This document shows, piece after piece, positions 2,573 to 18,486 of a stretch of DNA of 64,000 bases. Under the pieces are notes generated by a model, which saw only the letters and a program-made list of their open reading frames with translations, ran no database searches and was not told the origin of the DNA. Position numbers and translations under genes: made by a program. The stretch is from Oscillospiraceae bacterium. Lineage in GTDB: Bacteria; Bacillota; Clostridia; Oscillospirales; Ruminococcaceae. Each line of letters begins with the position of its first letter. The first letter of the stretch is position 1. The stretch lies in NCBI GenBank assembly GCA_017547245.1, contig JAFYQD010000003.1:186001-250000 (forward strand). The letters are read 5' to 3'.

Positions 2573-3010
2573 TTACAGCTTTTCGATGCCGTACATGCTG
2601 ATGGTGAAGTTGTAAAGAGCCTGATCTTTCAGGCGGTAGATGCGGCTGCGTTCCAGATGCATTTCTTCACACAAACGGTCGGCGGTATAGTTGTTGTCTT
2701 CCACATAAAATTTGTGCAGCAGTTCCCGTTCCTGGGGCTGCAGCGAATCCAGCCCGCGTTTGGTCAGGTCGACCAGTTTGTGGGTAAATTTGTAGGTCAG
2801 TTCCAGCCGCTGGCGTTCCACAATGTTGTTGACCAAGGCATCCTCCATGCGGCTGCAGCCGCCGCGCACAGGAATGCGGTCGGTGCTGGCGCCGCGCAGG
2901 GCGGTCATTTCTTCCTTCAGGGCCTGGTGACGCAGTTTGATATTTTTAAGGGCGCGGCATCTTCCTGCGTACTGTTTCAGTTCCTGTTCGGCTTCTCGTT
3001 TCCAATCCAT
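2573..3010 (-). CDS. Phage-type sigma-like/ArpU-RinA-like transcriptional regulator
   Basis: 145-residue protein. The N-terminal half is charged and helical. The C-terminal half reads like sigma-70 region 4 or an ArpU/RinA late-gene activator: GLDSLQPQERELLHKFYVEDNNYTADRLCEEMHLERSRIYRLKDQAL, with a helix-turn-helix at about residues 112-136. Such proteins activate late phage promoters. It is the second gene of a leftward pair; AAAGGAGCG lies before its ATG, 21 bases after the preceding gene. The pair starts at a LexA-box promoter, so this is the likely damage-induced switch for the rightward particle genes. Family assignment is from pattern, not from a search. Confidence 0.7.
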   Translation of the reverse strand: MDWKREAEQELKQYAGRCRALKNIKLRHQALKEEMTALRGASTDRIPVRGGCSRMEDALVNNIVERQRLELTYKFTHKLVDLTKRGLDSLQPQERELLHKFYVEDNNYTADRLCEEMHLERSRIYRLKDQALYNFTISMYGIEKL

Positions 3011-3031
3011 GTTTTGCGCTCCTTTCCTTTT

Positions 3032-3289
3032 TCATAAAAGACAGCTGTCCATTCTTTTCTGGCAGCGGTCAATGGCATTGAGATAGATTGTACGTATTTG
3101 TTCACGTTCCTCGTGGCTGAGGGGACTGAGGAACTGGTCGGCCTGCACCGTTTCCAGTTCCAGTTTCAGGTTGGTTTGGGTCTCCTTCCAATATTCCCAT
3201 TCTTCCAGAGGGGCGCGGTATGGGGCGGGAGACCGCGGCGGCATCTGCTGAAGACGGGGAAGAAGGTTGACAGAACATTGGTCGATCAA
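3032..3289 (-). CDS. Small leftward phage-module protein, unknown function
   Basis: About 85 residues if started at the TTG at 3287-3289, which has AAAGGAG 6 bases upstream. An in-frame ATG at 3367 would overlap the promoter and lacks a ribosome binding site, so I prefer the TTG. The protein is helical and charged, ending in a stretch built around HEEREQIRTIYLNAIDRCQKR. It has no recognised domain. It is the first gene after the LexA-box promoter and sits directly before the sigma-like regulator, as expected of an early regulatory protein. Confidence 0.55.
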   Translation of the reverse strand: MIDQCSVNLLPRLQQMPPRSPAPYRAPLEEWEYWKETQTNLKLELETVQADQFLSPLSHEEREQIRTIYLNAIDRCQKRMDSCLL

Positions 3290-3318
3290 AACGATGCTCC
3301 TTTCTTTCACAATTAAAA

Positions 3319-3330
3319 GAACAAATGTTC
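3319..3330. promoter_or_regulatory. LexA (SOS) operator box 1
   Basis: GAACAAATGTTC matches the Gram-positive LexA/DinR core GAAC-RNRY-GTTC exactly. It lies immediately downstream of the -10 of the leftward promoter, the classic position for repression. Confidence 0.75.
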
Positions 3331-3338
3331 TGAAATGG

Positions 3339-3367
3339 ATTATAACAGTGGAAGAATTGTTTTTCAA
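3339..3367 (-). promoter_or_regulatory. Sigma-A promoter of the leftward regulator pair
   Basis: On the minus strand TTGAAA (plus 3362-3367) and a perfect TATAAT (plus 3339-3344) are separated by exactly 17 bases. A LexA-type box begins 8 bases after the -10, where it would cover the transcription start. Confidence 0.8.
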
Positions 3368-3397
3368 GGCGGTTTATGGGACTTTGATGAAAATAAA

Positions 3398-3409
3398 GAA
3401 CAGATGTTC
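3398..3409. promoter_or_regulatory. LexA (SOS) operator box 2
   Basis: GAACAGATGTTC, a second exact match to GAAC-RNRY-GTTC. It is 79 bases from box 1, upstream of the leftward -35 and facing the rightward genes. It could add cooperative repression or control a rightward start. Confidence 0.7.
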
Positions 3410-3683
3410 GATTATTGCGGTCCTGTTTATGGAACAGAATGGGGTATAAATGCCGATGAATATGCGCAATGAAGCGGTGAAAGGACATGGAAAAAGAGAG
3501 GACGATTTTGTGGGAAAACCGTGGTAATATGATATCGTCCCCAAAAGGGACAGAACCGACCGCAAAGCCAAAGCATAATAAGAACAGCCAAAGACCGTTC
3601 GGCAGGGCATGGGCCTGCAGCGAGCGGTCTTTTTTGTATGTTCGTATGATTTGGTGCGTGGGCGGAACGAAAGGAGGGAGGAG
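3410..3683 (+). other. Control region before the terminase genes
   Basis: No convincing gene. A TATAAA at 3445-3450 could be a rightward -10, but no good -35 is present, as expected if an activator is needed. A hairpin with a T-run ends at about 3635. From there to the terminase RBS (AAAGGAGGGAGG, 3670-3681) there are about 35 bases. A short terminated leader transcript or small RNA is possible. Confidence 0.4.
3591..3635 (+). terminator. Hairpin terminator or attenuator in the phage leader
   Basis: AAGACCG pairs with CGGTCTT, and an inner GCAGG/CCTGC helix closes the loop. Six T follow. It lies about 50 bases before the small terminase start, so read-through here would control the late genes. 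Confidence 0.6.
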
Positions 3684-3920
3684 ATGCCGAAAAGCACCAG
3701 GGAAAGCAGCGCAGACAGTTTTGGCCGCCTACTGCGCAAAACAGCGCCCCGCGCGCTAAAGTTTATGGCCGCCACCATGGAGGACGAAAGTGTGGGGGTT
3801 GATTTGCGCATCAAGTGCTGCAAAGAGATTCTTTCGCGCTATGACCGTGAAGAGGTGGAAGCCGACGGCGGAACCATTCGGGTGGAGCTGAAGGGAGAGG
3901 CAGAAGACTATGCCAAATAA
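3684..3920 (+). CDS. Phage terminase small subunit-like protein
   Basis: 78 residues from the ATG after GGAGGGAGGAG. The central part (KTAPRALKFMAATMEDES followed by LRIKCCKEILSRYD) is the short helical repeat seen in small DNA-recognition terminase subunits of Firmicute phages. The C-terminus is acidic. It overlaps the large terminase start by 11 bases, a standard TerS-TerL arrangement. It would bind the DNA packaging start site and regulate the motor. At 78 residues it is short, so a separate DNA-binding domain is not evident. Confidence 0.75.
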   Translation: MPKSTRESSADSFGRLLRKTAPRALKFMAATMEDESVGVDLRIKCCKEILSRYDREEVEADGGTIRVELKGEAEDYAK

Positions 3921-5265
3921 AACGGTGTGCTGCCTGATGGAAGAGCCCAATCCGCGGCAAAAGGATTTTTTGCTGGCGCAAAGCCGTTTTGTGGCCTATG
4001 GCGGTGCCCGTGGGGGCGGAAAAAGCTGGGCAGTACGCCAAAAGGCCAAGCTGGCGGCTCTTTATTATCCGGGCATACGCATTCTGCTGATGCGCCGCAG
4101 CTATCCCGAGCTGAGGGAAAACCACATTCTGCCGCTGATGGCCGAGCTGAAGGACATTGCACGATGGAAAGAGAGCGAAAAGACCTTTTTGTTTGCAGGG
4201 GGCAGTCGTTTGCGCTTTGGCTATTGCGACAACGACGGCGACGTGTTGCGCTATCAGGGACAGGAGTATGACCTTATCTTTTTGGATGAGGCCACCCAGT
4301 TCAGTGAATATCAGTTCAGCGTGCTGACCGCCTGTCTGCGAGGTGCCAATGGCTTTCCCAAACGGATGTATTTGACCTGTAACCCCGGCGGTGTGGGACA
4401 CCAGTGGGTAAAGCGGTTGTTTGTGGACCGGCAGTATCGGGTGGGAGAAAACCCACAGGACTATACATTCATTCCTGCCAGAGTGTACGACAACCGTGTA
4501 CTGATGGAGCGGGACCCGGGCTATGCCGCCATGCTGGAAAACCTGGACCCCGACCTGCGCCGTGCCTGGCTGGAGGGTGACTGGGATCTGGCGGCAGGAC
4601 AATATTTTGCCTCCTTCCGCAGGGAGAGCCATGTGGTGGCGCCCTTTGTGCTGCCCGCCCATTGGCGCAGGTATATCACCATGGACTATGGGCTGGATAT
4701 GTTGGCCTGTTACTGGGTGGCGCTGGACGAAGGGGGCAGGGCCTATGTCTATCGGGAACTGTACCGACCCGACCTGATTATCAGTGAGGCGGCGGGACTG
4801 ATCAGACAGATGACCCCGCCGGAAGAGAAAATCCACGCACGGCTGGCTCCCCCCGACCTGTGGAACCGACGCCAGGACACAGGACGCAGTGTGGCCGAGG
4901 TTTTTGCACGGGAGGGGCTGCCCCTAATCCGTGCCGCCAACGACCGTGTGATGGGATGGTATGACCTGCAGGAATGGCTGAAGGTGCGGGATTATGGTGG
5001 ACAGAAGCTGCCTGGGTTACAGATTTTTGACTGCTGCCCCAACCTGATACGCACCCTGCCGGCGCTGCAAAGGGATATCCACAACCCCAACGATTGTGCC
5101 GCAACACCCCACGAACTGACCCATGCCCCCGATGCACTGCGCTATTTTGCCGCAGGCAGACCCTGCCCCGGCGCCGAGGCTGCCCGACCCCATGAGTATC
5201 ATTTTGAGGCCATGCGGCCCAAAACCGACCTGATGGGCAGAGGGGAACGGCGCCGTGTGATGTAG
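3910..5265 (+). CDS. terL: Phage terminase large subunit
   Basis: DNA-packaging ATPase and nuclease, 451 residues. Walker A GGARGGGKS lies at residues 31-39, Walker B LIFLDEA around 122-128, the coupling motif YLTCNPGG at 154-161, and the RNase H-like nuclease domain starts at YITMDYG with Asp259. The end DAPDALRYFAAG-type segment (here APDALRYFAAGRP) is the usual last nuclease motif. All key residues look intact, so the motor is likely functional. It starts inside terS and is followed 12 bases later by a small membrane protein gene. Confidence 0.95.
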   Translation: MPNKTVCCLMEEPNPRQKDFLLAQSRFVAYGGARGGGKSWAVRQKAKLAALYYPGIRILLMRRSYPELRENHILPLMAELKDIARWKESEKTFLFAGGSRLRFGYCDNDGDVLRYQGQEYDLIFLDEATQFSEYQFSVLTACLRGANGFPKRMYLTCNPGGVGHQWVKRLFVDRQYRVGENPQDYTFIPARVYDNRVLMERDPGYAAMLENLDPDLRRAWLEGDWDLAAGQYFASFRRESHVVAPFVLPAHWRRYITMDYGLDMLACYWVALDEGGRAYVYRELYRPDLIISEAAGLIRQMTPPEEKIHARLAPPDLWNRRQDTGRSVAEVFAREGLPLIRAANDRVMGWYDLQEWLKVRDYGGQKLPGLQIFDCCPNLIRTLPALQRDIHNPNDCAATPHELTHAPDALRYFAAGRPCPGAEAARPHEYHFEAMRPKTDLMGRGERRRVM

Positions 5266-5277
5266 AAAGGAGCAGAA

Positions 5278-5454
5278 ATGGAACATTGGATGACAGCCGC
5301 ACTGCTGGCTGCGGCCCTGACCCTGGGGGCCTACCGCCTGGGGCTGAGGGATGGCCTTTGGCAGGCCGGACGAACACTGCCCGGCATCGGCGGCCGAAAG
5401 AAACCCGACAGACGGCAGGAAAAGACACTGGCCGCACGGGTGGAAGAATTTTGA
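5278..5454 (+). CDS. Small membrane protein of the phage module
   Basis: 58-residue open frame starting at an ATG preceded by AAAGGAGC, beginning MEHWMTAALLAAALTLGAYR. That gives one hydrophobic segment at about residues 5-20 followed by a strongly basic tail. It sits in the tight gap between terminase and portal genes. No family recognised. A role in lysis or membrane association is only a guess. Confidence 0.55.
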   Translation: MEHWMTAALLAAALTLGAYRLGLRDGLWQAGRTLPGIGGRKKPDRRQEKTLAARVEEF

Positions 5455-5471
5455 CCCAAGGAGGAAGACCT

Positions 5472-7031
5472 ATGGAAAAACACAAGGACCGCCGGCAGCA
5501 GAACCAGGCGCTGGCAAACCGCATCTGGCAGATGTACCAGATGGGGCTGCAGCACCACCGACGGCACAACCTTTATGACCGCAGCCGCCGCTGCCACCGC
5601 TTTTATGAAGGCGACCAGTGGTATGCCGAGGGAGGTGGTCTGGAGGAAGAAAATCTGCCGGTTTATAACTTTATTGAGCCGGTGGTCAACTATAAGGTGG
5701 CTACGGTGGCCATGCAGAACATGGAAATCCATTACAGCGACATGGGCGGAAGAATGGGTGCTGCATTCTGCGATGCGCTGGATGACTATGCCGCACGCTG
5801 TTGGGAAAGACAGAAGATGTCGGCACGGCTGTGGGAAGTGGTGCGTGAAGCCTGCATCACCGGCGAAAGCTACCTTTATTTTTATGATGCCGACCTGAAC
5901 CACCAGATGGTGGACAGCACAGCCGTATTTTTGGCGGACGAACAGGAACCTGACCTGCAGAAGCAGCGCTATATCCTGATGATGGAGCGCCTGCCGGTGG
6001 AAACCGTGCGCCGTGAAGCCCTGCGTTACGGTATGAGCAGTGAGGACGCACAGGAAATCCGGCCCGACAGCGACACCCCGTGGTGGAGCACCGAACAAAA
6101 CCAGAAAAGCAGCGGCGAGGGCAAATGCACCAGCCTGCTTTATCTGGAAAAGACGGAGGAGGGTATTCAGTTCTGCCGCGCCACCCGAAACACCGTATAT
6201 CAACCCATGCAGACGGTGCCGGGACTGAAACTTTACCCCATGGTAAGTTTTGTGTGGAAGCGCAGATACCACAGCGCCCGCGGCCGAGGGGAAGTGGCAC
6301 CCCTGATTGCCAACCAGATTGAGGCCAACAAGACCCTGTTCCGCCGTTTGCAGGCCATGAAGGCTTCGGCCTTCCCCAAGCCTGTATATGTGGAGGGAAT
6401 GGTGGAAAACCCCGAAGAAGTTACCGCAGTAGGTTCGCCCATCCGTGTGCGTGAGGGCTCGGTGCAGACGGTGAACGAGGTGTTTACCTATCTTTCGCCC
6501 ACCCACATTTCTTCGGATGCCACATTGCTGCAGCAGGAACTGATCAACCAGAGCCGTGAACTGGCCTCGGCCGGTGATGCCGCATTGGGCAACATCAACC
6601 CCGAAAATGCCTCGGGTGCGGCCATTTCGGCAGTGCGTGAGGCACAGGCGGTGCCTTTGAACGAGCAGATTGCCGTTTGCCGCCAGATGGTGGAAGACAT
6701 TGCGCTGGTTTGGCTGGATATGCTGACCGCCTACTATCCCACCGGGCTGACCGAAACCGAACAGAAGCGCCTGCCCGACCGCAAAATGCTGAAGGCCATG
6801 CGCATGTCGGTTTGGGTGGATGTTTCGCCGGTGGACCCTTACAGCCGGCTGGCCCGTGAACAGGCGGTGCGCTCGGCTTTGCAGGCCGGACACATCACCT
6901 TTGAGGAGTATGTGAAGGCTTTGGATGACCGCAGCAGCGCACCTCGACAGAAGTTTGAGGAAATTTTGAACCGTCGTAAGAAAAATGAAAAAGGTCTGTT
7001 TGAAACCATGCAGGAAGGAGGAAGAGCATGA
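5472..7031 (+). CDS. Phage portal protein (P22-like type)
   Basis: 519 residues from the ATG after GGAGGAAGACCT. An upstream in-frame extension exists but overlaps the small membrane protein gene and is unlikely. The N-terminal region with YDRSRRCHRFYEGDQW and NFIEPVVNYKVATVAMQNMEI resembles portal proteins of short-tailed and related phages, and the middle has ANKTLFRRLQAMKASAFPKP. The portal forms the dodecameric DNA channel at one capsid vertex and docks TerL. It overlaps the next gene by the ATGA quartet. Confidence 0.85.
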   Translation: MEKHKDRRQQNQALANRIWQMYQMGLQHHRRHNLYDRSRRCHRFYEGDQWYAEGGGLEEENLPVYNFIEPVVNYKVATVAMQNMEIHYSDMGGRMGAAFCDALDDYAARCWERQKMSARLWEVVREACITGESYLYFYDADLNHQMVDSTAVFLADEQEPDLQKQRYILMMERLPVETVRREALRYGMSSEDAQEIRPDSDTPWWSTEQNQKSSGEGKCTSLLYLEKTEEGIQFCRATRNTVYQPMQTVPGLKLYPMVSFVWKRRYHSARGRGEVAPLIANQIEANKTLFRRLQAMKASAFPKPVYVEGMVENPEEVTAVGSPIRVREGSVQTVNEVFTYLSPTHISSDATLLQQELINQSRELASAGDAALGNINPENASGAAISAVREAQAVPLNEQIAVCRQMVEDIALVWLDMLTAYYPTGLTETEQKRLPDRKMLKAMRMSVWVDVSPVDPYSRLAREQAVRSALQAGHITFEEYVKALDDRSSAPRQKFEEILNRRKKNEKGLFETMQEGGRA

Positions 7032-7555
7032 GCGAAAAAGAGAATCTTCAGAAAGAAGAACAGATGCCCGAAGAATACCCCCGCATTGCCGCCCTGCGCA
7101 GCTGCCGCCGCAAGATGGAGGAGCTGCTGAAGCAGGCCGAAGAACTGACGGGGGAGCAGTGGATGGTGGTTGCCTCCGCACAGGAAGACCCTGACAGCCG
7201 GATGAGAGCCGCACAGTATCGGCGTCTGGCCTATCTGCAGGTGCTGGAAGACGACCTGCGCCGTATCCGAAAAAAGTTCCCTGCAGAAAAGATTGCCAGC
7301 CTGAGCCAGCTGGGTGAAGAGTACTATGCCCTGCGCCAGAACGGCATTGACCCTGTGGTGGCCTGTGCTGCTGTGCTGAAAAGCCGCAGCAGCGAAACCA
7401 AGCCCCCCGAAATGGGTCTGTTGAGCTGCCGCCGACAGGACGCAAAGGAATATTACACCCCTGCTGAGGTGGACCGACTGACCGAAAAGGAACTGAAGGA
7501 CCCTGCTGTAATGGCTGCCGTACGCTGGTCCATGACCAAGTGGAAGCAGCGCTGA
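7028..7555 (+). CDS. Scaffold-like head assembly protein
   Basis: 175 residues, highly charged and helical, with an N-terminal coiled-coil-like part and a C-terminal segment (KEYYTPAEVDRLTEKELKD) common at the end of scaffolding or head-assembly proteins in Firmicute phages. Its position, overlapping portal by 4 bases and directly before the capsid gene, is the usual scaffold position. Function is inferred from place and composition. Confidence 0.65.
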   Translation: MSEKENLQKEEQMPEEYPRIAALRSCRRKMEELLKQAEELTGEQWMVVASAQEDPDSRMRAAQYRRLAYLQVLEDDLRRIRKKFPAEKIASLSQLGEEYYALRQNGIDPVVACAAVLKSRSSETKPPEMGLLSCRRQDAKEYYTPAEVDRLTEKELKDPAVMAAVRWSMTKWKQR

Positions 7556-7604
7556 AAATGAACCGCCCCCCAAAGGGGCAACCGTGAAAAGGAGAGGATT
7601 ATTT

Positions 7605-8429
7605 ATGGCATACGAAAATTTTAAGCCCACCGTTTGGAGCGCAAAGATCCAGATGGAAATGCCCAAGTTTACCGTGTTCGAAAGCGAATGCAACTATCAG
7701 TTTGAAGGTGAAGTGAAGAAGGGCCGTTCGGTCAAGATTATCGGCATCGGCCGTCCCACCATTGGTGACTATACCGGTCAGTCCATCGGCGCCCCCGAAG
7801 TGATTCCCGACACTTCCATCCTGATGCCCATCGACCAGGCCAAGTACTTTAACTTTATGGTGGACGATGTGGACGCCGCCCAGGCCAACGACGGCCAGAT
7901 GGAAGCCCTGCTGGAAGGCAGCATCCGTGCCCTGGCCGAAGAACGTGACAAGTATATTGCCAAGCTGTGTGCCACAGACGGTGGTGCATGTTCCGCTTCG
8001 CTTTCTATCACCGACAAGGCTTCGGTAAAGCATGCTGTGGATGCCGCCCTGGTCAAGCTGATGAGCGAAGGCGTATCCCTCAGCAACGACAATGTTACCA
8101 TCTTCCTGTCCCCCAAGGCTTTCCTTTATTTTGCCGACTATGTAATGGATACCCGTACCCAGAACGACAAGGCCATGGAAACCGGTGTGCTGGGCCGCTA
8201 TATGGGCTGCAACGTCAAGATGAGCAACAATTTTTACAACGACGGCACCGACGACTATCTGATTGTAAAGACCGACAAGGCCGTGGCCTTTGCCTCCGGT
8301 CTGGACCAGATGGAAGCCTACCGTCCCCAGAACCTGTTCTGCGACGCAGTGCGCGGCCTGAACACCTTTGGTGGCCGTGTGGTACGCCCCAAGGAACTGT
8401 ACATCATCAAGGCCCATTACGAAGCCTGA
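7605..8429 (+). CDS. Major capsid protein
   Basis: 274 residues from the ATG after AAGGAGAGG; a longer start 21 bases upstream lacks spacing. The sequence has the mixed alpha/beta character of coat proteins, with an N-terminal MAYENFKPTVWSAKIQMEM, a middle TLLMPIDQAKYFNF-like stretch (ILMPIDQAKYFNFMVDDVD) and a conserved-looking end GLNTFGGRVVRPKELYIIKAHY. No protease gene accompanies it. The size is small for a coat protein but plausible for a podovirus-type head. Confidence 0.8.
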   Translation: MAYENFKPTVWSAKIQMEMPKFTVFESECNYQFEGEVKKGRSVKIIGIGRPTIGDYTGQSIGAPEVIPDTSILMPIDQAKYFNFMVDDVDAAQANDGQMEALLEGSIRALAEERDKYIAKLCATDGGACSASLSITDKASVKHAVDAALVKLMSEGVSLSNDNVTIFLSPKAFLYFADYVMDTRTQNDKAMETGVLGRYMGCNVKMSNNFYNDGTDDYLIVKTDKAVAFASGLDQMEAYRPQNLFCDAVRGLNTFGGRVVRPKELYIIKAHYEA

Positions 8430-8457
8430 GTTTGAGTAAAAAAAGGAGTGATTGAGT

Positions 8458-8820
8458 ATGGCAGCAGTAAACATTGAACCCAAGAAGATTATGCGCAACA
8501 GTCTGACTATGGTAAACCCCGCCGATTTTGTGGCAGTAAATGCCGCCGACGGTGCCGTTGTACCCATGTTCAGCGATTCCCGTCTGCTGATTGTCTGCCA
8601 CAACAGCGGCAGCGGCAGCGTTACCGCCACTGTGGTCAAGGGCAACGCCCTGCAGGGCGCAGGCAGCGACCTGACCCTGCAGATGACCGCCGGCGGCTAT
8701 GCCTTTGCCGTGGTGGAAAGCGGCCTTTACGGCAACACCAGCGGTGAACTGCGCGGCAAGATCTGCCTGAAGGGCAGCTCGGCCAACCTGCAGGTGGCAG
8801 CCTATCATATGCCCGAATAA
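8458..8820 (+). CDS. Small head/decoration-like protein
   Basis: 120 residues, starting at the ATG after AAAAGGAG (a TTG 6 bases earlier is possible). It is rich in Ser, Gly, Val and Ala and predicted beta, with VCHNSGSGSVTATVVKGNA. It follows the capsid gene by 28 bases, the usual place of a capsid decoration or head-fibre protein. No catalytic motif is seen. The rightward transcript meets a strong terminator just after it. Confidence 0.6.
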   Translation: MAAVNIEPKKIMRNSLTMVNPADFVAVNAADGAVVPMFSDSRLLIVCHNSGSGSVTATVVKGNALQGAGSDLTLQMTAGGYAFAVVESGLYGNTSGELRGKICLKGSSANLQVAAYHMPE

Positions 8821-8831
8821 AACAGGGCAGC

Positions 8832-8870
8832 AAAAAGCGGCAGGACCGAAGCCGGTCCTGCCGCTTTTTT
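8832..8870. terminator. Bidirectional terminator inside the phage module
   Basis: Near-perfect 17-bp stem AAAAAGCGGCAGGACCG with its complement, tetraloop AAGC, T-run on the right and A-run on the left. It would end both the rightward head operon and the leftward M23 gene, and so splits the particle genes into two transcripts. Confidence 0.85.
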
Positions 8871-8875
8871 GAAAG

Positions 8876-9643: not shown

Positions 9644-9745
9644 AGTGTTCAGTGCCTTTCTGGTCCGCGGAAGTGTGACACAGCGGCGCTGCCGGCGGAG
9701 CCTGCGGCAAACGCCGAAAAAACTGCCAAAGCAGGTCTTTCGGGA

Positions 9746-10968: not shown

Positions 10969-12827
10969 AAACAGTTGCCATGAGGGGCGCAAGTGCGGCA
11001 AAACACATTTCCACCTATTCCAGCTTTGTGGGGGTGGATTTTTCCACCGACCCGATGCTGGTGGATAAAAAGCACAGCCCGTATGCCCTGAACCTGGTGG
11101 CCGACGACGGCGGCATGCCCGAAAAACGCCCCGGGTGGCGTACCCTTTTTCAGATGGAAGGGAGAATCAACGGGTTGTTCCATTGCCGCATTGACGAAAA
11201 AGAACACTGCCTTTGTCATGCCGGAAGCGGCCTGTGGGAGGTGGATTTGGAAAACCCCGAAACCGATCCCGTTTTGCTGCGTGAAGGGCTGAATGATGCC
11301 GCCAGCCGCAGCTTCTTTTTGCAGGACAGGCTGTATCTGCTGACCGGTCGTGAATATCTGGTGTATGACGGAAAGGCGGTGGCAGAGGTGGAGGGCTATG
11401 TGCCCACCCTGCAGATCAACCGTCTGCCCGACGGCAGCGGCGGTCTGGCTTTGGAGGCCGAAAACCTGCTTGACCCCAGAGGGGTTGAGGAGTTTTGCGC
11501 AAACAGCTCCAAAAAGTATCAGCTGAGCCGCACAGGGTTGGACCAAACCCCCGTGGTTTGCTGGGTGCTGGACAGCAACGGGGAATGGGTGGAGAAAACA
11601 GAGGACAGCGATTTTACGGTGGACCGGGAAAAGGGGATTGTCACATTTAATACGGCACCCGCAACCTCCGACCTGGTCAATGTAAGAATTCTTTCCTCCA
11701 AAACCACCCCGGGCAATGCCGATAAGATTAAAAAGGCCAGAAACTGTGCCGTTTTTAACGAAGGCACGGTGTTTGTTTGCGGCAGCGTAAAGGGTCAGGA
11801 CTTCCGCAGCGGATATCTTAGACCCGACTATTTCCCGGCCAACGGATATGACCGTGTGGGCAGCGATGAAAACGACATTGTGGGATACTGCCGTTTGGGG
11901 GAATATCTTGGCATCATCAAAGAGGATTCGGAAGAGAACAGCACCCTGTTTTTGCGCTGGCAGGAAACCGAAAAGGATGACCAGGGCAACGAATATGTGG
12001 TCTTTTTCAAAAAGGCAGGCATTGTTGGTGTGGGGGCGCTTTCGGCGGCTTCCATCGGGCGGCTGGTGGACGAACCACTCTTTTTGACCCGCCGCGGCAT
12101 TTATGGGGTGACCTCAAACGCTTTGACCGAAAACCATTCGGTGCAGAACCGCAGCCTTTACTGCAACAACCGCCTGACCGCCGAACCCAATCTGGAAAAA
12201 GCCTGTACGGTGGAATGGAAGGGGCGTTTTCTGGTTTGCGTCAACAACCACTGCTATCTGTTGGAATCCCAAAGAAAAAGCAGTCCCTATGGCAGCAGCG
12301 GTCAGGTGTATGAGTGCTATTATTGGGAAAACATTCCGGCCGTATGCTTTATGGAACGGCAGGACCACCTGTTTTTTGGCACCCACGACGGCCGAATCTG
12401 CCGCTTTAACACCGACAGGGAAAAACTGGACCGCTTCAGCGATGACGGGGAGGCCATCCCTGTGGTATGGACAACCTGTATGGATGATGACGGGTACCCC
12501 ACACGGCTGAAAACCCTGGAAAAACGGGGATGCGTGGTGACGGTAAAACCCTTTGTGCGCAGCAGCGTTGAAATCTGTTTGAGAACCGACCGTGACCCCA
12601 TTGCCAAAGAGGTGCGCAAGGGTTGGGTGGATATTTTTGATTGGGAACAGATTGACTTTAATCGGTTTACCTTTGATTCCAACGATGGCGCACGTGATAT
12701 TTCGGTGGGCACAAGGGTGCGCAATTACCGCAGGCTGCAGTTTGTGGTGCGCAGCAATGCCGTAAACGAGGGCTTTGGCATCTATCAAATCTCCAAAACC
12801 TTCCGTTTGGGCAAGGTGCCCCGATAA
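10965..12827 (+). CDS. Large phage tail hub-like protein
   Basis: About 620 residues. I choose the TTG at 10965, which overlaps the preceding stop (TTGA) and has GGGTGGTGG upstream; ATG codons at 10941 and 10950 lack an RBS. The N-terminal part (SSFVGVDFSTDPMLVDKKHSP, then YALNLVADDGGMPEKRPGWR) followed by repeated beta strands and short aromatic motifs suggests a beta-propeller-like hub, as in P22 gp10-type short-tail proteins. No tape-measure gene exists nearby, which also points to a short tail. Confidence 0.6.
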   Translation: MKTVAMRGASAAKHISTYSSFVGVDFSTDPMLVDKKHSPYALNLVADDGGMPEKRPGWRTLFQMEGRINGLFHCRIDEKEHCLCHAGSGLWEVDLENPETDPVLLREGLNDAASRSFFLQDRLYLLTGREYLVYDGKAVAEVEGYVPTLQINRLPDGSGGLALEAENLLDPRGVEEFCANSSKKYQLSRTGLDQTPVVCWVLDSNGEWVEKTEDSDFTVDREKGIVTFNTAPATSDLVNVRILSSKTTPGNADKIKKARNCAVFNEGTVFVCGSVKGQDFRSGYLRPDYFPANGYDRVGSDENDIVGYCRLGEYLGIIKEDSEENSTLFLRWQETEKDDQGNEYVVFFKKAGIVGVGALSAASIGRLVDEPLFLTRRGIYGVTSNALTENHSVQNRSLYCNNRLTAEPNLEKACTVEWKGRFLVCVNNHCYLLESQRKSSPYGSSGQVYECYYWENIPAVCFMERQDHLFFGTHDGRICRFNTDREKLDRFSDDGEAIPVVWTTCMDDDGYPTRLKTLEKRGCVVTVKPFVRSSVEICLRTDRDPIAKEVRKGWVDIFDWEQIDFNRFTFDSNDGARDISVGTRVRNYRRLQFVVRSNAVNEGFGIYQISKTFRLGKVPR

Positions 12828-12845
12828 AAGAAAAGGAGGGACAGA

Positions 12846-13484
12846 ATGAGCATTCTGGATCATAAAATCAATCAAATTGATATTGATATGGCAGGTGTGA
12901 CCGCCCTGCCCGATGTTCTGACCGGCTCGGCAGACGAGAACAAAAGGCTGTTTGACCGTCTGGTAAGTCAGGTTGTCAGCCGGCACTTCAACGCCCTGTT
13001 GGAAGAACTGACTTCCCAAATGGGTGCGGAACAGATTGGCGCTGCGCTGCAGGGCATTGAAGGAACCACCGTACAACAGGTTTTAAGCGGTCTGAAAAAA
13101 GATATTGACTCGGCTGCCTTTGCGGCAGGCAGTGTAAGCAGTGTGTTTGGACGTGCTGGCAATGTGGTGGCCCAAAGCGGTGACTATACCCCCCAGCAGG
13201 TGGGTGCGGCACCGGCCATCCACTGCGCACAGGTGACCATTGGCACCCAGTGGAGTGAAGACGGGGACCGTTGGGTACAGCCCTTTGAACATGAACTGGT
13301 AACCACCAACACCCGTGTGGACCTTTGCCCCGACAGCACAGTGATGCTGAAGCTTGGAAAAGCCGGCGCCACCTGTTTGTATGTAGAGAACAACAACGGC
13401 ACAGCGCAGGCGGTGGTTATGGGGAATGCACCTGAAGAAGAACTGCTGGTGCAGGCAGACTTTGTGGAGGTGACTGCGGTATGA
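12846..13484 (+). CDS. Phage tail fibre-like protein
   Basis: 212 residues after AAAAGGAGG. An N-terminal helical part (residues 1-90) leads to SVFGRAGNVVAQSGDYTPQQ, a motif widely seen in tail fibres and tail-associated adhesins, then a beta-rich end. The C-terminus (VQADFVEVTAV) overlaps the next gene by 4 bases. Confidence 0.7.
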   Translation: MSILDHKINQIDIDMAGVTALPDVLTGSADENKRLFDRLVSQVVSRHFNALLEELTSQMGAEQIGAALQGIEGTTVQQVLSGLKKDIDSAAFAAGSVSSVFGRAGNVVAQSGDYTPQQVGAAPAIHCAQVTIGTQWSEDGDRWVQPFEHELVTTNTRVDLCPDSTVMLKLGKAGATCLYVENNNGTAQAVVMGNAPEEELLVQADFVEVTAV

Positions 13485-14317
13485 CCATCAATGGCAGAGG
13501 ATATTGCGGCGGCGCACAAAGCCGCCTGAACCTGACGGTGGTAAGCGGACTGACCCAGCCTGAAAACCCTGCCAACAACACCATCTGGCTGAACAGCGAC
13601 CTGGCGGTAAACGGCGTTTATATCGGCCCCACCTGCGAGGTGATGAACCCTCAGGTTGGGGCTGTGTGGATCAACAACTCCACACGCTATCACCCCGATA
13701 CCGCTTTGGAAATCAGCTCGGTTACCTGCACCATGGTTGTTTCGCAGCAGCCTTTTCTGCTGATTAATATTCTGCAGGTAAGCCAGTGGGACGGCGAAGA
13801 ATGGGTGCACTGTGACGGTGCTGTTTTTTCCAACTATGAATGGACCGATATGGCGCTTTATATCTTCTACCACGGCACCATGAATGTGGATTTCCCCGTG
13901 GGGGTGGGTTATGCGTCGTCGGCGTCGGCTGCGGTGGAAAACAACCATTCCCCCACCCACAACAGCGAATACATGGTGGTGGAAGGGGATGGAGAAGCCA
14001 TCTATTGCACCGTGACCACCAAACAGGGCTGCGGTGTTGATGCGGGCCGTTTTGCAACGCTGGGCATCGGTTACAGCAAACAGGGCGGCACCCTGACCTC
14101 TTCCAGACTGTACTGCGGCTTTACCACCAATTTGGATTCGCCGCTTTCCTTTGCGGAGGCAGACAATGCTCAAAGTGTACAGCTGACATCTTCGGCCGAA
14201 CTGCAGGAAGTGACCGTTCCCATTGAGTGTGCAGGTTTGGTGCGCCCGACCGTCAAGTTCCAAAGCAGCAGCTCGGACCCTTATTCGCTGGCCATTCACT
14301 ATTGGGTACTTACTTAA
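13481..14317 (+). CDS. Phage tail-associated beta-rich protein
   Basis: 278 residues, starting in an ATGA overlap with the fibre gene before it. It contains PENPANNTIWLNSD, a form common in phage baseplate and fibre proteins, and many short beta-type repeats rich in Ser, Thr and Val with few charged residues. No enzyme motif seen. Probably a structural part of the tail tip or fibre. Confidence 0.55.
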   Translation: MTINGRGYCGGAQSRLNLTVVSGLTQPENPANNTIWLNSDLAVNGVYIGPTCEVMNPQVGAVWINNSTRYHPDTALEISSVTCTMVVSQQPFLLINILQVSQWDGEEWVHCDGAVFSNYEWTDMALYIFYHGTMNVDFPVGVGYASSASAAVENNHSPTHNSEYMVVEGDGEAIYCTVTTKQGCGVDAGRFATLGIGYSKQGGTLTSSRLYCGFTTNLDSPLSFAEADNAQSVQLTSSAELQEVTVPIECAGLVRPTVKFQSSSSDPYSLAIHYWVLT

Positions 14318-14329
14318 GGAGGTGGAAGA

Positions 14330-14632
14330 ATGATCAGAGGAACAACACCTACCCATCGGTTTGCTTTGCCTGTGGGTATGGAAAACATCAAAGAGGTGCG
14401 GGTGACCTATGCCCAGAAGGGCAGACCTGTGCTGACCAAAAAGAACAACGACTGCAGCGTGGAGGGAAGAAACCTTTCGGTAAGGCTGAGCCAGACAGAT
14501 ACTTTTCTGTTTGATCCCGGCCACGAGGTGGAAATTCAGCTGAGAATTTTGACCCCCACCGGCGATGCCCTTGCCAGCGAAATCATCAGAACCACCGTGG
14601 AACGATGCCTTGAGAATGAGGTGATGGCATGA
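14330..14632 (+). CDS. Conserved small phage structural protein, unknown role
   Basis: 100 residues after AAGGAGGTGG. The pattern PTHRFALPVGMENIKEVRVT, a middle Lys-rich turn, LSQTDTFLF and a C-terminal LRILTPTGDALASE suggests one compact beta domain. Similar short proteins sit among fibre genes of Firmicute prophages. It overlaps the collagen-like gene by 4 bases. Confidence 0.55.
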   Translation: MIRGTTPTHRFALPVGMENIKEVRVTYAQKGRPVLTKKNNDCSVEGRNLSVRLSQTDTFLFDPGHEVEIQLRILTPTGDALASEIIRTTVERCLENEVMA

Positions 14633-15093
14633 GTATTTCGGAAAATCAGCGGTTTTTTGGAAATACCGAGTTTTCCCGGACGGAACAGAGCTTCTCGACT
14701 GGTTTTAATTCCATAACGCCGGTGCATGGCCTTGACGGCAAAGACGGCCGTGATGGCAGAGACGGTCGTGACGGTGTGGATGGCCGCAATGGTCTTGACG
14801 GCCGTGATGGTGTGGACGGCCGCAACGGCCTTGATGGCCGTGACGGTACGGATGGTTATACCCCGGTAAGGGGAGTGGATTACTGGACCGAAAGCGACCG
14901 CAGCGAGATGATAAAGGAGTTGGCACAGGCGGTGGGACTGCCGGCTGTAACAACTGCAGACAATGGAAAAATTCTGCAGGTTGTAAACGGCATCTGGACA
15001 CTTGTGCCCCTGCAAAGCGGCGGAACCGGGGCCGGTGGTGCCGACAGGCTGGGACAAGGGCTGCTTGGCAGTATGATTTTGGGAGGAGTGTAA
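14629..15093 (+). CDS. Collagen-like phage fibre protein
   Basis: 154 residues. About residues 33-76 are Gly-X-Y triplets of the form GRDG/GLDG/GVDG/GRNG, forming a short triple-helix shaft. It is followed by GYTPVRGVDYWTESDRSEM, a segment common in phage fibres, and a C-terminal DNGKILQVVNGIW motif that recurs in the next gene's product. It should trimerise and act as a spacer holding a receptor-binding end. Confidence 0.75.
   Translation: MSISENQRFFGNTEFSRTEQSFSTGFNSITPVHGLDGKDGRDGRDGRDGVDGRNGLDGRDGVDGRNGLDGRDGTDGYTPVRGVDYWTESDRSEMIKELAQAVGLPAVTTADNGKILQVVNGIWTLVPLQSGGTGAGGADRLGQGLLGSMILGGV
14728..14856 (+). repeat. Collagen-like triplet repeat tract
   Basis: About 43 codons in 9-base units, mainly GGCCGTGAC-like and GGTGTGGAT-like, encoding G-X-D and G-R-N repeats. 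Such tracts vary in copy number by slippage. Confidence 0.8.
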
Positions 15094-15099
15094 TATTTT

Positions 15100-15744
15100 A
15101 TGGCCTATAATAAACAAAACTTTTTGGATGGACAGGTGTTGAAGGCGGAACACCTGAACCACATGGAAGAAGGGTTTGAAAATCTTTCGTGGAATGACCT
15201 GAAGCACAAACCCTTTGGCAGCATTGCATTGAGCGACAGCTGCAGTTTTGCCGCCGCGCCTGCCGTGTATTTTGATTTGGCAGGTCAGATGAAGTTTTAT
15301 AAAATCTCTGACCTGACCCCCGACTATAACGATCTGCTGCACACCGTTTTCACCCTGAATAAGGATGGCACGGCAACAGAAGTTGCCCCCAAGGCAGAAG
15401 AATTTATGCTCAACAATGAGACTGTCTGCTGTTTTGCAACAGAAAACTATGCCTTTGGGGTAGCCTATGCCACAGGCGAAGTTGAAACAGACTATGGTGT
15501 GATAACCCTGCCCGAAACCGGTACCTATATGGGCTGGGCAGCAGACAGCGCCCTACCTGCAACAATGACGGTTGGCTTTCGCTGTGAATATCTGAAGCAG
15601 CTGGATGAAAAGTATTTGCCCGAAAGCAGCGGGGCAGACGGACTTCCCCAAGTAACCGCAGACGACAACGGAAAGCTGCTGCAGGTGGTTGGCGGTAAAT
15701 GGGCTGCCGTAACCATTGCCAACGGAAACGGGGTGGCTTACTGA
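15100..15744 (+). CDS. Phage tail/fibre-associated protein
   Basis: 214 residues. It starts MAYNKQNFLDGQVLKAEHLN, then HMEEGFENLSW, a motif common at the N-terminus of baseplate-attached fibre proteins. The C-terminal DNGKLLQVVGGKWAAV repeats the module found at the end of the collagen-like protein just upstream. Its stop overlaps the next start (TGATG). Probably a fibre component that attaches to the tail. Confidence 0.6.
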   Translation: MAYNKQNFLDGQVLKAEHLNHMEEGFENLSWNDLKHKPFGSIALSDSCSFAAAPAVYFDLAGQMKFYKISDLTPDYNDLLHTVFTLNKDGTATEVAPKAEEFMLNNETVCCFATENYAFGVAYATGEVETDYGVITLPETGTYMGWAADSALPATMTVGFRCEYLKQLDEKYLPESSGADGLPQVTADDNGKLLQVVGGKWAAVTIANGNGVAY

Positions 15745-16652
15745 TGGCAAATGTATTTATTGAAGAAAGCACCATGACGGCAATCGGCGATGCCATCCGT
15801 GCGAAAACCGGTGGTACCGGCGGCATTCTTCCTGCCAATATGCCTGCTGAAATTGCTAACATCACTACTGGTGGTGGCGGTGGGGTCACAAACACTTCGG
15901 GCGGTTTGATTTTTCCTGCCGATATAACGGCATCTTCTGCTAATGTGTTTGATCAAAACACCATAAGTGGTTATATACGTGTGGAAATTCCTGAAGACGG
16001 TATTCCTCTTGGTGGATGGGCTTATTGGTATCTCAAGGGAACAAATAGTGCTGGTAGCTCTGTTGGTACAATCGAGGAAGGCCAATACCTTATGGCTCCG
16101 GGTGAAGAGTTGACGGTTAAATCCACAAGCATGGGCAGGACGGTTTACAGTCTTGCGGAATACACCCATACTATCAGCGGTGCATATCACATGAGCTGCA
16201 ATGTAAACAATCCGATTTTCTACTTTTTGCAGCCCAATGCCTATATTCAGAATAAGATTCTTTACGCTGGTGAAGGCACAAAGGGTTTGTTTGGATCTAT
16301 TGGCTACAACAGTACAAAATGCATCGAACCCTATGCGATAGAAGGCATTGATTTGCGTGGTTCTTTGGTAAAAAGACTGCCTGATTATATTTTTCATCGA
16401 AACAGCAACATTAAAAAACTGTGGCTTTCGGAAGTTTTTGAGTATTTTACCGGCGCAAACTTTGCCGGCACAGATGTAGGCATTGAAGAACTTCACTTTA
16501 CAGCCCAAACACCGTTCGCTGTTGGCAGCAGTTCTGTGTTTAGCAGCTTACCCACCACCTGCAAAATCTACGTTCCTGCCGGCACTCTTTCGGCATATAC
16601 AAGTGCGACATACTATCCGAGTGCATCCACTTACACCTATATTGAAGAATAA
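15744..16652 (+). CDS. Fibre tip protein with BspA-like C-terminal repeat
   Basis: 302 residues from the ATG at 15744. The start (IEESTMTAIGDAIRAKTGG) is the small fibre-attachment segment common in gut phages. A glycine-rich hinge follows at about residue 48. The last 80 residues have the BspA/leucine-rich type ending (TTCKIYVPAGTLSAYTSATY), often used for host-surface binding. From about base 15890 codon use shifts to A/T-ending codons unlike the genes on either side, suggesting a separately acquired tip. Confidence 0.65.
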   Translation: MANVFIEESTMTAIGDAIRAKTGGTGGILPANMPAEIANITTGGGGGVTNTSGGLIFPADITASSANVFDQNTISGYIRVEIPEDGIPLGGWAYWYLKGTNSAGSSVGTIEEGQYLMAPGEELTVKSTSMGRTVYSLAEYTHTISGAYHMSCNVNNPIFYFLQPNAYIQNKILYAGEGTKGLFGSIGYNSTKCIEPYAIEGIDLRGSLVKRLPDYIFHRNSNIKKLWLSEVFEYFTGANFAGTDVGIEELHFTAQTPFAVGSSSVFSSLPTTCKIYVPAGTLSAYTSATYYPSASTYTYIEE

Positions 16653-16710
16653 GGCCGAATCAGCCTGAGACGTTAGGGTCAAAGGCAAAAAACAATTGGA
16701 AAAGCGAAGC

Positions 16711-16740
16711 AAACGGCAGGCTTTGGCCTGCCGTTTGTGT
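16711..16740 (+). terminator. Hairpin after the fibre genes
   Basis: Ten-bp stem AAACGGCAGG/CCTGCCGTTT, 6-base loop. The T-run is short, so it may only weaken transcription into the lysis genes. Confidence 0.45.
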
Positions 16741-16753
16741 TGGAGGCGATGTT

Positions 16754-17056
16754 ATGGAAAACCAATATATAGGTCGGGGCGAGCATGAGGAGTTTGTGCG
16801 CCGTATGGAAGATGAGCACCGCCGTATGAATGTGCGCATCAGAAGTGTGGAGCAAAAGGCCGACACGCTGGTGGAACTGACCGCCAGCGTGGAAAGCATT
16901 GCCGCCAGTGTAAAGACCCTGACCGAAAAGGTTGCAGACCTGGAAAGAAAACCTGCGGAAAACTGGAACACCGTAGTAAAGGCCGGCCTGACCGCTGTTG
17001 GGGCGGCGCTGGGCGGCGGCCTGATCGGTGTGCTGGCCGCAACACTTGTAAAATAA
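16754..17056 (+). CDS. XhlA-like haemolysin/holin-associated protein
   Basis: 100 residues. A long amphipathic coiled coil at about 10-70 (EHEEFVRRMEDEHRRMNVRI) ends in one membrane helix at about 78-98 (TAVGAALGGGLIGVLAATLV). This is the layout of the XhlA membrane proteins found next to holins. It sits 12 bases before the holin gene. It likely helps membrane lysis for particle release. Confidence 0.7.
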   Translation: MENQYIGRGEHEEFVRRMEDEHRRMNVRIRSVEQKADTLVELTASVESIAASVKTLTEKVADLERKPAENWNTVVKAGLTAVGAALGGGLIGVLAATLVK

Positions 17057-17068
17057 GGAGGAACCCAA

Positions 17069-17344
17069 ATGAACTTAACCGTAAGAATGAAGAACCCTGT
17101 ATTCTGGGCACAGGTTGCAGCGGCTGCCGCATTGCAGATTATGGCTTATTTTGGCCTGACCGGTGCCGATTTTACCACCTGGCCCATGGTGTGGCAGACC
17201 GTTTTGCAGGCGGTGCGCAATCCCTATCTGATGGTGTGTGTGGCGGCTGCGGTATGGAATGCGCTGAATGACCCCACCACCGCAGGTCTGGCCGACAGCG
17301 CCAGAGCCATGGCTTACACCGCTCCCTATCGGGAGGAAGTGTGA
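17069..17344 (+). CDS. Phage holin (phi LC3-like family)
   Basis: 91 residues after AAGGAGG, with two hydrophobic segments (about 10-30 and 48-68). The end DPTTAGLADSARAMAYTAPY is the conserved tail of this holin family. It would form pores that let the amidase reach peptidoglycan. Its stop overlaps the amidase start. Confidence 0.85.
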   Translation: MNLTVRMKNPVFWAQVAAAAALQIMAYFGLTGADFTTWPMVWQTVLQAVRNPYLMVCVAAAVWNALNDPTTAGLADSARAMAYTAPYREEV

Positions 17345-17946
17345 TGAAACGGGTTGAAATGTATGCGCCGGCGGGCAGCAACTGTCGTTCGGGATACACC
17401 CTGATCCCTCAGTACATCACCATACACAACACCGCCAACCGCAGCAAAGGGGCAGATGGCATTGCCCACGGAAAGTATCTGCAGGGCGGCGGTAAAGATT
17501 TGTATGTAAGCTATCATTATTGCGTGGATGACCGTCAGGCGGTGGCCATTATTCCCGAAAACGAGGTGGCGTGGCATGCAGGAGATGGCGCACAGGGCGT
17601 GGGCAACCGCCGCTCCTTTGCCATTGAAATTTGCGAAAACGCCGATGGCGACCTGCTGAAGGCCACCGAAAACGCTGCCGAGCTTACCCGTATGCTGATG
17701 GAGAAATACCATATTCCCATTGAGAACGTAAAAATGCACAAAGACTGGAGCGGTAAGCTTTGTCCCAACCGCCTGCTGAAGGGTGAACCCTATGACTGGC
17801 AGACCTTTCTGGCACGGGTGCAGGGCAAACAGGTGCCCAAAAATCAGACCGAACATCACAGCGCAGAACGCTGCAGACAGGAAAGAGAGCAGATCCGCCG
17901 ATGGGTGGAGCAGATGCGTGAACTGTTGAAGGAGGCAGAAGAATGA
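17344..17946 (+). CDS. Endolysin: N-acetylmuramoyl-L-alanine amidase
   Basis: 200-residue peptidoglycan amidase (Amidase_2 fold, about 15-155). The zinc ligands are visible: ITIHNTANRS gives the first His, VKMHKDWSGKLCP gives the second His and Cys. VAWHAGDGAQGVGNRRSFAIEICEN is the usual middle block. The C-terminal 45 residues are charged and may be a short cell-wall or coiled-coil tail. It uses the ATG at 17344, overlapping the holin stop, rather than GTG at 17341. Confidence 0.92.
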   Translation: MKRVEMYAPAGSNCRSGYTLIPQYITIHNTANRSKGADGIAHGKYLQGGGKDLYVSYHYCVDDRQAVAIIPENEVAWHAGDGAQGVGNRRSFAIEICENADGDLLKATENAAELTRMLMEKYHIPIENVKMHKDWSGKLCPNRLLKGEPYDWQTFLARVQGKQVPKNQTEHHSAERCRQEREQIRRWVEQMRELLKEAEE

Positions 17947-18482
17947 GCAAGAAGCAGAAATCAGTTCTGGCAGCAGACAAACAGAAAAACGGCGGACTGA
18001 CCACCGCAGCGGTAAGCCCTGCCGGTTATGCCAAAAAGGAGAATGGCATTGCAGAAAACCCTTATGTAGAACAGAAGACCGGCAGCGCCGGACAGCCTGT
18101 TAAACTGAAGGAAAACAGCATGCTGCTGTCCGAACAGACCGAAAGTGCCGAGGTCGATCCTTTTGATGTACCCGATGAAGAACTGAGCGAGGCCGAAGAA
18201 AGAAAAAGACGTGCCGCATTTAAGGCGGCGCAGGCCGAAAAAGAGGCCTATCGCAACATCGTTCGTGAAGCCTATGAGGACTACCGCCGCAATCAGGTGC
18301 TGTTCCCCGAATACATGATGCAGATGGACAGCGGCCATTACGATGACCTGCTGACCCGCAACGACCTGGTTTTTCAGGAATATGTGAAGGAAATGGCCGA
18401 AGAGATGGACAGAAAAAACAAAAAGCTGGAAAAACAGCTGGAGGCTCTGACCAAGGCTGTTGAACTTCCCAAAGAACTCTAA
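17943..18482 (+). CDS. Unknown coiled-coil protein ending the phage module
   Basis: 179 residues, overlapping the amidase stop by 4 bases. N-terminal half low complexity and polar; the C-terminal half is charged and coiled coil (SEAEERKRRAAFKAAQAEKE and later EEMDRKNKKLEKQLEALTK). No recognised family. A strong terminator follows, so it is the last gene of the late transcript. Confidence 0.55.
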   Translation: MSKKQKSVLAADKQKNGGLTTAAVSPAGYAKKENGIAENPYVEQKTGSAGQPVKLKENSMLLSEQTESAEVDPFDVPDEELSEAEERKRRAAFKAAQAEKEAYRNIVREAYEDYRRNQVLFPEYMMQMDSGHYDDLLTRNDLVFQEYVKEMAEEMDRKNKKLEKQLEALTKAVELPKEL

Positions 18483-18486
18483 ACAG

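What the first reader, a model, noticed from the sequence alone, without database searches (positions are those of the whole stretch)
2573..18482. SOS-linked, integrase-less particle module that may be a domesticated gene-transfer-agent-like system
Seen: in one 16-kb block there are terminase small and large subunits (all motor and nuclease motifs intact), P22-like portal, scaffold, capsid, connector and hub-like proteins, fibres, XhlA-like protein, holin, amidase, and a sigma/ArpU-like regulator behind a LexA-box promoter. Not seen: integrase, excisionase, replication, repressor or tape-measure genes. Its base composition, by eye, matches the host, apart from the fibre tip. Established: gene-transfer agents carry just such a late-gene set plus host control. 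Inferred: the block may make damage-induced particles that package host DNA, or it is a reduced prophage.
Basis: partly seen in the sequence, partly recalled or inferred. Interest (0 to 1): 0.85.

Follow-up and report, generated by a model that had tools for sequence, protein, structure and literature searches.

The report
SOS-controlled podovirus-like gene-transfer-agent candidate
A gut bacterium related to Faecalibacterium keeps, at a fixed place in its chromosome and next to DNA-damage control sites, the head, DNA-packing, short-tail and lysis genes of a former phage with a sporulation operon lodged between them, which suggests that it makes gene-carrying particles for its own use.

Summary
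Window 2573-18482 carries a podoviral head, packaging, fibre and lysis set without integrase or replication genes. Four lineages share the module; three show the lodged operon directly, the fourth is consistent. Window against L056: dN/dS 0.04-0.26 in 16 module genes, dS 0.40-0.94 (two fibre genes higher), lodged host genes 0.54-0.76; no premature stops where about 70 are expected under neutrality. TerS lacks the HTH domain. The LexA box matches those before uvrB and a Y-family polymerase gene. So this is a domesticated, SOS-linked packaging module rather than a decaying prophage; DNA packaging itself is inferred. The kind is known: FpGTA of Faecalibacterium (Nat Commun 2026), podovirus-like, same family. 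The window's TerL rejects common ancestry with the FpGTA-like one (AU p = 2e-53), so domestication looks independent, and wiring and layout differ. Other genera of the family also keep such modules at fixed loci, one with the terminase pair alone among host genes. New variant of a known kind.

The parts
2573..3010 (-). ArpU/RinA-like late regulator (145 aa), 85% identical in G163
   Evidence: phrog_36 E 5e-15, TIGR01637 arpU E 1e-7 below its cut-off; dN/dS 0.13 against G163
3032..3286 (-). small ORF between regulator and promoter (84 aa), function unknown; no match in G163
3319..3330 (.). LexA box 1 GAACAAATGTTC beside a leftward TTGAAA-17-TATAAT promoter (3334-3367); one mismatch to GAACN4GTTC at the aligned place in G163
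3398..3409 (.). LexA box 2 GAACAGATGTTC; GAACAAATGTTC at the aligned place in G163
3488..3552 (+). conserved non-coding block with inverted repeat GGACGAT/ATCGTCC and extended -10 TGGTAATAT; candidate late promoter (inferred, read by eye)
   Evidence: alignment with G163
3684..3920 (+). TerS (78 aa): core and C-terminal segment only, no Terminase_2/HTH match
3910..5265 (+). TerL; Walker and nuclease motifs present by eye
   Evidence: PF04466, phrog_979, 5oea E 0.006
5278..5454 (+). small ORF (58 aa)
   Evidence: codon-based gene call
5472..7031 (+). P22-like portal
   Evidence: PF16510 E 7.5e-13
7028..7555 (+). scaffold-like protein, by position and conservation
7605..8429 (+). major capsid protein
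   Evidence: phrog_267 E 7.5e-38; 8e16 E 5e-35
8458..8820 (+). head or tail accessory protein
   Evidence: phrog_16194 E 0.0015
8832..8870 (.). hairpin with A and T tracts on both sides; looks like a two-way terminator; paired changes in L056 and L034
   Evidence: read by eye; the pattern scan did not list it
8876..9643 (-). lodged host gene: SpoIIQ-like M23 peptidase
   Evidence: NF053738 best but below its cut-off; 3uz0/3tuf best
9746..10135 (-). lodged host gene TauEb
   Evidence: PF01925
10132..10518 (-). lodged host gene TauEa
   Evidence: PF01925
10619..10968 (+). adaptor-like protein, by position
   Evidence: lies just before the hub in L034, L056, G163 and several relatives
10950..12827 (+). 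large short-tail/hub-like structural protein
   Evidence: phrog_3287 E 4e-19; relatives at 28-88%
12846..16652 (+). fibre genes (12846, 13481, 14330, 14629 collagen-like, 15100, 15744 tip); one 504-aa ORF in their place in G163
16754..17056 (+). XhlA-like protein
   Evidence: phrog_937
17087..17344 (+). holin
   Evidence: PF04531
17344..17946 (+). N-acetylmuramoyl-L-alanine amidase
   Evidence: PF01510
17943..18482 (+). last module gene, unknown (phrog_1524 E 0.009)

Best explanation
A domesticated podovirus late module that works as a gene-transfer-agent-like system. Shown by comparison: it shares its left flank with a second species, holds a host operon at the same point in three lineages, is under purifying selection, and has LexA boxes of the host's own SOS type. 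Inferred: DNA damage removes LexA; the leftward promoter makes the ArpU-like activator; this turns on the late operons on either side of the lodged TauE-SpoIIQ operon; short-tailed particles assemble; TerL with a TerS that has no pac-reading domain fills them with host DNA at random; holin and amidase lyse a minority of cells. Fibre diversity suggests that particles meet variable cell surfaces.
For: Left flank shared with G163, which has one extra gene next to the regulator. TauEa-TauEb-SpoIIQ at the same point in the window, L034 and L056; G163's contig begins inside TauEa and runs into the right half. Window against L056: dN/dS 0.04-0.26 for 16 module genes (TerL on 57 codons; tip and left-end genes not compared), dS 0.40-0.94 apart from two fibre genes (1.14, 1.76), lodged host genes 0.54-0.76. 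Of 13 genes compared with both L056 and L034, 13 are closer to L056 in protein identity, the 3 lodged genes included. Neutral simulation: about 72 stops expected in 15 genes at 0.3 substitutions per site; the L056 copies are full or nearly full length. No PF00589 or PF00239 match near. TerS without Terminase_2, while 4 of 4 long TerS controls have it. LexA box shared with uvrB and a Y-family polymerase gene.
Against: No particle or packaged DNA seen. Same-genus G073 (99% complete) lacks the module. Against G163, module dS is higher than that of flanking host genes (13 genes 0.54-1.71, median 1.00; 6 host genes 0.48-1.01, median 0.68), so some exchange is possible; gene 8458 (dN/dS 0.90-1.00), the last gene (0.60-0.66) and fibre gene 12846 (0.38 against G163) evolve fast. 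The right flank differs in G163 and L056. The uvrB box was not found in exact form in G163. A 1711-aa protein of a related temperate phage has no match in 8 genomes, G163 included, in a search without positive control. L056's right end carries an Ntox44 toxin-domain protein. One long-TerS control, G389, is itself from a module without recombinase seen beside it, so TerS type does not track domestication everywhere.
Confidence: 0.68

Rival explanations
1. A domesticated killing or toxin-delivery particle (PBSX-like in role): capsids or tails are kept to harm competitors and packaging of DNA is incidental.
For: A close lineage (L056) ends the module with a protein that has an Ntox44 toxin domain and partial repeats of it downstream; fibres diversify fast; the 1711-aa phage protein was not found.
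Against: TerL is under strong selection (dN/dS 0.08-0.17), as are portal and capsid; the L056 toxin-domain protein matches nothing in the window or the other loci held.
Confidence: 0.17
2. A degrading prophage remnant.
For: No early genes or integrase; right flank variable; two genes with dN/dS of 0.6-1.0.
Against: dN/dS 0.04-0.26 and full or nearly full-length copies in L056 at dS about 0.6; GC3 like the host except at the fibre end.
Confidence: 0.05
3. A phage satellite or helper module whose packaging serves another mobile element.
For: Packaging and head genes without replication genes.
Against: No integrase, a host operon lodged inside, left flank shared by two species.
Confidence: 0.05
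4. An ortholog of FpGTA by vertical descent.
For: Same bacterial family; same start TerS-TerL-portal-scaffold-capsid; TerS without a recognisable DNA-binding domain in both.
Against: One TerL clade rejected, AU p 1.9e-53, the group being named after a first tree was seen; capsid families differ, phrog_267 against phrog_1357, and scaffold against a protein with a Prp protease domain.
Confidence: 0.03

Closest known systems
FpGTA of Faecalibacterium (PMC12946183; abstract, passages and sections 9, 10, 26, 38 read)
   Same: Podovirus-like, no replication genes, TerS without an obvious DNA-binding domain, same early gene order, same bacterial family
   Different: Separate TerL clade and capsid family; FpGTA is two operons about 125 kb apart in one strain, here two half-modules flank a spoIIQ operon; LexA boxes here and none within 1.6 kb upstream of TerL in the 3 FpGTA-like loci examined. 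That genus g81 is Faecalibacterium is my inference from MAM homologues and operon layout.
RcGTA (PMC6854486, passages read)
   Same: TerS lacks the N-terminal HTH; domesticated late genes
   Different: Long-tailed and alphaproteobacterial with other regulators (recalled)
Caulobacter GTA (PMC9632790, passages read)
   Same: Domesticated module linked to survival of DNA damage and stationary phase
   Different: Repressed by RogA, a LexA-like repressor of GTA activators without the key cleavage residues, not by a LexA box at the module
PBSX of Bacillus subtilis (named in PMC12946183; DNA-damage induction and long tail recalled)
   Same: Gram-positive GTA-like element
   Different: Does not inject packaged DNA and acts as a tailocin; long-tailed
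Temperate podoviruses of IMG/VR such as IMGVR_UViG_3300003155_000025 (G433, 34 kb)
   Same: TerL 55%, hub 46%, similar late gene order
   Different: Integrase, early genes and a TerS with Terminase_2

Membership tests
Gene transfer agent | phage-derived head, packaging, tail and lysis genes intact | tested here: met
Gene transfer agent | no integrase, excision or replication genes | tested here: met
   none read in the block; PF00589 absent from the contig, PF00239 from the assembly
Gene transfer agent | vertical inheritance and purifying selection | tested here: met
   dS against G163 is above that of host flanks
Gene transfer agent | TerS without a sequence-reading domain | tested here: met
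   by sequence only
Gene transfer agent | host-controlled expression | tested here: inconclusive
   LexA boxes like those before uvrB and a Y-family polymerase gene; expression not tested
Gene transfer agent | particles package random host DNA and deliver it | not testable with these tools
   no experiment
FpGTA lineage | common descent of TerL | tested here: not met
   AU p 1.9e-53, FpGTA-like loci identified by inference
Temperate prophage | integrase or recombinase and early genes next to the late module | tested here: not met
SpoIIQ (lodged gene) | NCBIfam SpoIIQ equivalog score | tested here: inconclusive
   best hit but 65 bits against a cut-off of 250; SpoIIQ is the best solved structure

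The most novel reading that the evidence does not exclude
Podoviral late modules have been domesticated many times over in this one gut family, each lineage with its own wiring (LexA/ArpU, XRE, or scattered gene blocks). Gene-transfer particles would then be a recurrent trait of Ruminococcaceae, and the window is the SOS-wired case with a sporulation operon lodged in it.
Probability: 0.45. Interest if true: 0.82.

Novelty: new variant of a known kind. Interest (0 to 1): 0.62.

Why it matters
GTA-like packaging of host DNA was measured in human gut Ruminococcaceae and Oscillospiraceae in 2026, but a gene set was named only in Faecalibacterium, and its homologues were not found in the Gemmiger and Subdoligranulum genomes examined (PMC12946183). 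This locus gives a second, apparently independent gene set in the family, predicts induction by DNA damage, and offers a criterion (fixed locus, TerS without HTH, no integrase) for finding others. It would make SOS-triggering drugs a possible trigger of gene exchange among gut commensals.

Tried and rejected
Antisense silencing of spoIIQ by read-through of the late operon: dropped, because a conserved terminator-like hairpin separates them. Excision/empty-site test in G073: the eamA neighbour and the right-flank order are not kept there, so no clean empty site could be read. SpoIIQ neighbourhoods in 16 relatives: 0 of 16 hold module genes at tblastn E 1e-3, so the place is particular to this clade. 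M23 matches lie near phage genes in two other loci (L068 27%, L230 30%), not between accessory gene and hub, and were read as phage peptidases. Profile searches of hub and portal against solved structures found nothing at E 0.1. The structure of hub or TerS could not be predicted: the machine was busy. The D/P labels on the 76-row TerL tree rest on limited reading of flanks and are not used for a count of origins. Rows dropped: IorB (alignment slip), AmidoH (75 codons), a paralog match of eamA in L083. TerL was left out of the 13-gene comparison: its 57 codons in L056 are 81% identical, its 356 in L034 87%, over different stretches. Gene calls of the window from a 40-kb slice and of G127b, G202, G256 fell in wrong frames and were not used; two searches were used.
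Full report
What is there. The window lies at G000:C7:186001-250000, in a 56%-complete assembly. Between 2573 and 18482 there is a leftward ArpU/RinA-like regulator, a promoter region with two LexA-type palindromes, then TerS, TerL, P22-like portal, scaffold-like protein, major capsid protein and an accessory gene. Next comes a minus-strand host operon TauEa-TauEb-SpoIIQ-like M23, then an adaptor-like gene, a 628-aa structural protein, six fibre genes, XhlA-like protein, holin, amidase and a last unknown gene. The 2 PF00589 matches of this assembly lie on contigs C1 and C8, and no PF00239 match was found. GC3 of the module resembles the host except for the fibre tip (z -6.2) and two neighbouring fibre genes (z -2.5).

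Distribution. TerL relatives at E <= 0.001, many of them distant, occur in 116 of 396 genomes of the family. Of the 29 loci fetched from genomes other than the window's own, only G163's shows a portal above 45% identity to the window's. The portal is found in 2 of 3 genomes of the genus, the window's own included. The third, G073 (99% complete), lacks it but keeps a TauE-TauE-SpoIIQ operon elsewhere. G163, apparently the water-deer cecum MAG RGIG8644, has the same left flank (acyl-CoA synthetase-like, glyoxalase-like and EamA genes, named by eye or weak family hits) with one extra gene next to the regulator. Its second contig starts inside TauEa and runs into the right half. Two IMG/VR contigs of one metagenome, L034 and L056, carry the TauE-SpoIIQ operon at the same point. 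L034 is 90-93% identical to G163 in DNA over its two long matches and 74-80% to the window. So there are four lineages, with the lodged operon seen directly in three. Of 16 SpoIIQ neighbourhoods fetched from relatives, none holds module genes. Of the 80 portal relatives listed from genome contigs, G163 (L167) is the only one above 48% identity. In the 14 others where both accessory gene and hub were matched in one locus, they lie 0.6-1.1 kb apart with no such operon between.

Selection. Window against L056, Nei-Gojobori dN/dS: portal 0.11, scaffold 0.14, capsid 0.04, hub 0.11, amidase 0.11, holin 0.08, XhlA 0.06, the five compared fibre genes 0.13-0.20, last gene 0.26. Synonymous distance is 0.40-0.94 (two fibre genes 1.14 and 1.76), against 0.54-0.76 for the three lodged host genes. 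Of 13 genes compared with both L056 and L034, 13 put L056 closer in identity, lodged genes included (TerL left out, 57 codons). Against G163, 10 of 13 module genes have ratios 0.11-0.26; fibre gene 12846 is 0.38, the last gene 0.60 and the accessory gene 8458 0.90. Module dS has median 1.00 against 0.68 for six flanking host genes. The other fibres are replaced by one ORF there. A neutral simulation at 0.3 substitutions per site gives on average 72 premature stops in 15 genes and 0.9 genes intact, while the L056 copies of these genes align at full or nearly full length. The junctions are conserved, including a terminator-like hairpin with paired changes between the accessory gene and SpoIIQ.

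Control. GAACAAATGTTC or its complement occurs at three places in G000: at the module, about 80 bp before uvrB (NF003673, 1048 bits) and just before a Y-family polymerase gene (best NF002848, below its cut-off). The last place is kept in G163. In G163 the exact sequence stands at module and polymerase only; its uvrB was not examined. The general pattern GAACN4GTTC is not enriched in either genome (16 against 32, 11 against 30 for the reversed control). Box 1 adjoins a leftward TTGAAA-17-TATAAT promoter; shuffles give 0.9 such sites on average. Box 2 is kept in G163, box 1 has one mismatch there, and a 65-bp non-coding block before TerS is conserved. Boxes also occur within 1.6 kb upstream of TerL in 2 of 21 other loci checked (G061, G175), and in none of the 3 FpGTA-like ones.

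Terminase small subunit. TerS is 78 aa and has no Pfam match; relatives align on a core plus C-terminal segment. None of 5 short TerS matches Terminase_2 (one, of G119, matches DUF5681). Four of four long TerS do, three from modules with integrase, recombinase-like or early genes (G433, G319b, G104) and one from G389, whose module has none beside it. An absent HTH is the feature that Sherlock et al. 2019 proposed for GTA small terminases (PMC6854486, passages).

Relation to what is known. Borodovich et al. 2026 (PMC12946183; abstract, passages and sections 9, 10, 26 and 38 read) describe FpGTA: two operons in Faecalibacterium, about 40-nm heads, about 9-kb DNA, TerS without an obvious DNA-binding domain, probably podovirus-like. 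They report GTA-like packaging also in Gemmiger, but no FpGTA homologues there. Genus g81 here is probably Faecalibacterium: MAM homologues occur in 3 of its 4 tested members and in 0 of 10 other genomes, and it has a 9.6-9.8 kb operon of the published layout. Holding the window clade and g81 TerL as one clade costs 464 log-likelihood units (AU p 1.9e-53; the group was chosen after the tree), and the capsids belong to different PHROGs. So the window module works like FpGTA, as far as sequence tells, but is not descended from the same terminase. Searches for 'gene transfer agent' with Oscillospiraceae, Ruminococcaceae, Firmicutes/gut and LexA, and for spoIIQ with prophage and terminase, showed no title or abstract on this locus in the rows listed (20 of 49 papers, 12 of 30); only open-licence PMC papers are held.

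Wider pattern, less firmly established. In g101, G101 and G241 keep TerS-TerL alone between the same host genes (TerL dN/dS 0.06, dS 0.58, like the neighbours; TerS 0.33 on dS 0.14), with other late genes in separate blocks in G372 and G292. In g88, G175 and G088 keep a module beside the same transporter-like genes and an XRE-like regulator. In g62, G389 and G357 share flanking gene families, and a module beside a gene read by eye as a serine recombinase also exists there (G319b). For these genera PF00239 was searched in G101, G372, G175, G088, G389 and G357, and no listed match lies within 30 kb of the module. PF00589 was searched only in G175 among them, with none on the module's contig. Temperate relatives with integrase, early genes and a Terminase_2 TerS exist (G433). 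This suggests several domestications, but the labels were read by eye and were not counted.

What is inferred. Particle formation, random packaging, delivery and the activator role of the ArpU-like protein are inferred. The missing 1711-aa phage protein (a search without positive control) and the Ntox44 domain in L056 leave room for a killing particle.

Noticed in passing
L258 11266-12833 and L263 8387-9954 (G101, G241): TerS-TerL pair stands alone between the same housekeeping genes in two species of genus g101, under purifying selection; other late genes lie in separate blocks in G372 and G292. Looks like a dispersed GTA-like system.
   Followed up: partly
L114-L115 and L041 (G175, G088): Module beside the same transporter-like genes and an XRE-like regulator in two species of genus g88; dN/dS of module genes 0.1-0.3 where dS was not saturated.
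   Followed up: partly
L056 13467-15053 and 15466-15717: Last gene of the L056 module encodes an Ntox44 toxin-domain protein, followed by partial repeats of itself, like a polymorphic-toxin cassette.
   Followed up: partly
L118-L119 (G061): A module of another genus lies about 2 kb from the same DnaJ/IorAB-like gene cluster that flanks the window module on its right, and has two GAACN4GTTC boxes upstream of TerL.
   Followed up: no
window 18482-18633; L101 5699-7115; L056 13409 onward: The right edge of the module adjoins different genes in three lineages (amidohydrolase-like, HtrA-like, both by eye, and a toxin-domain gene) although the left flank is shared by window and G163.
   Followed up: no
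window 54370-54715: tmRNA gene with tag AENNFAYAA.
   Followed up: no
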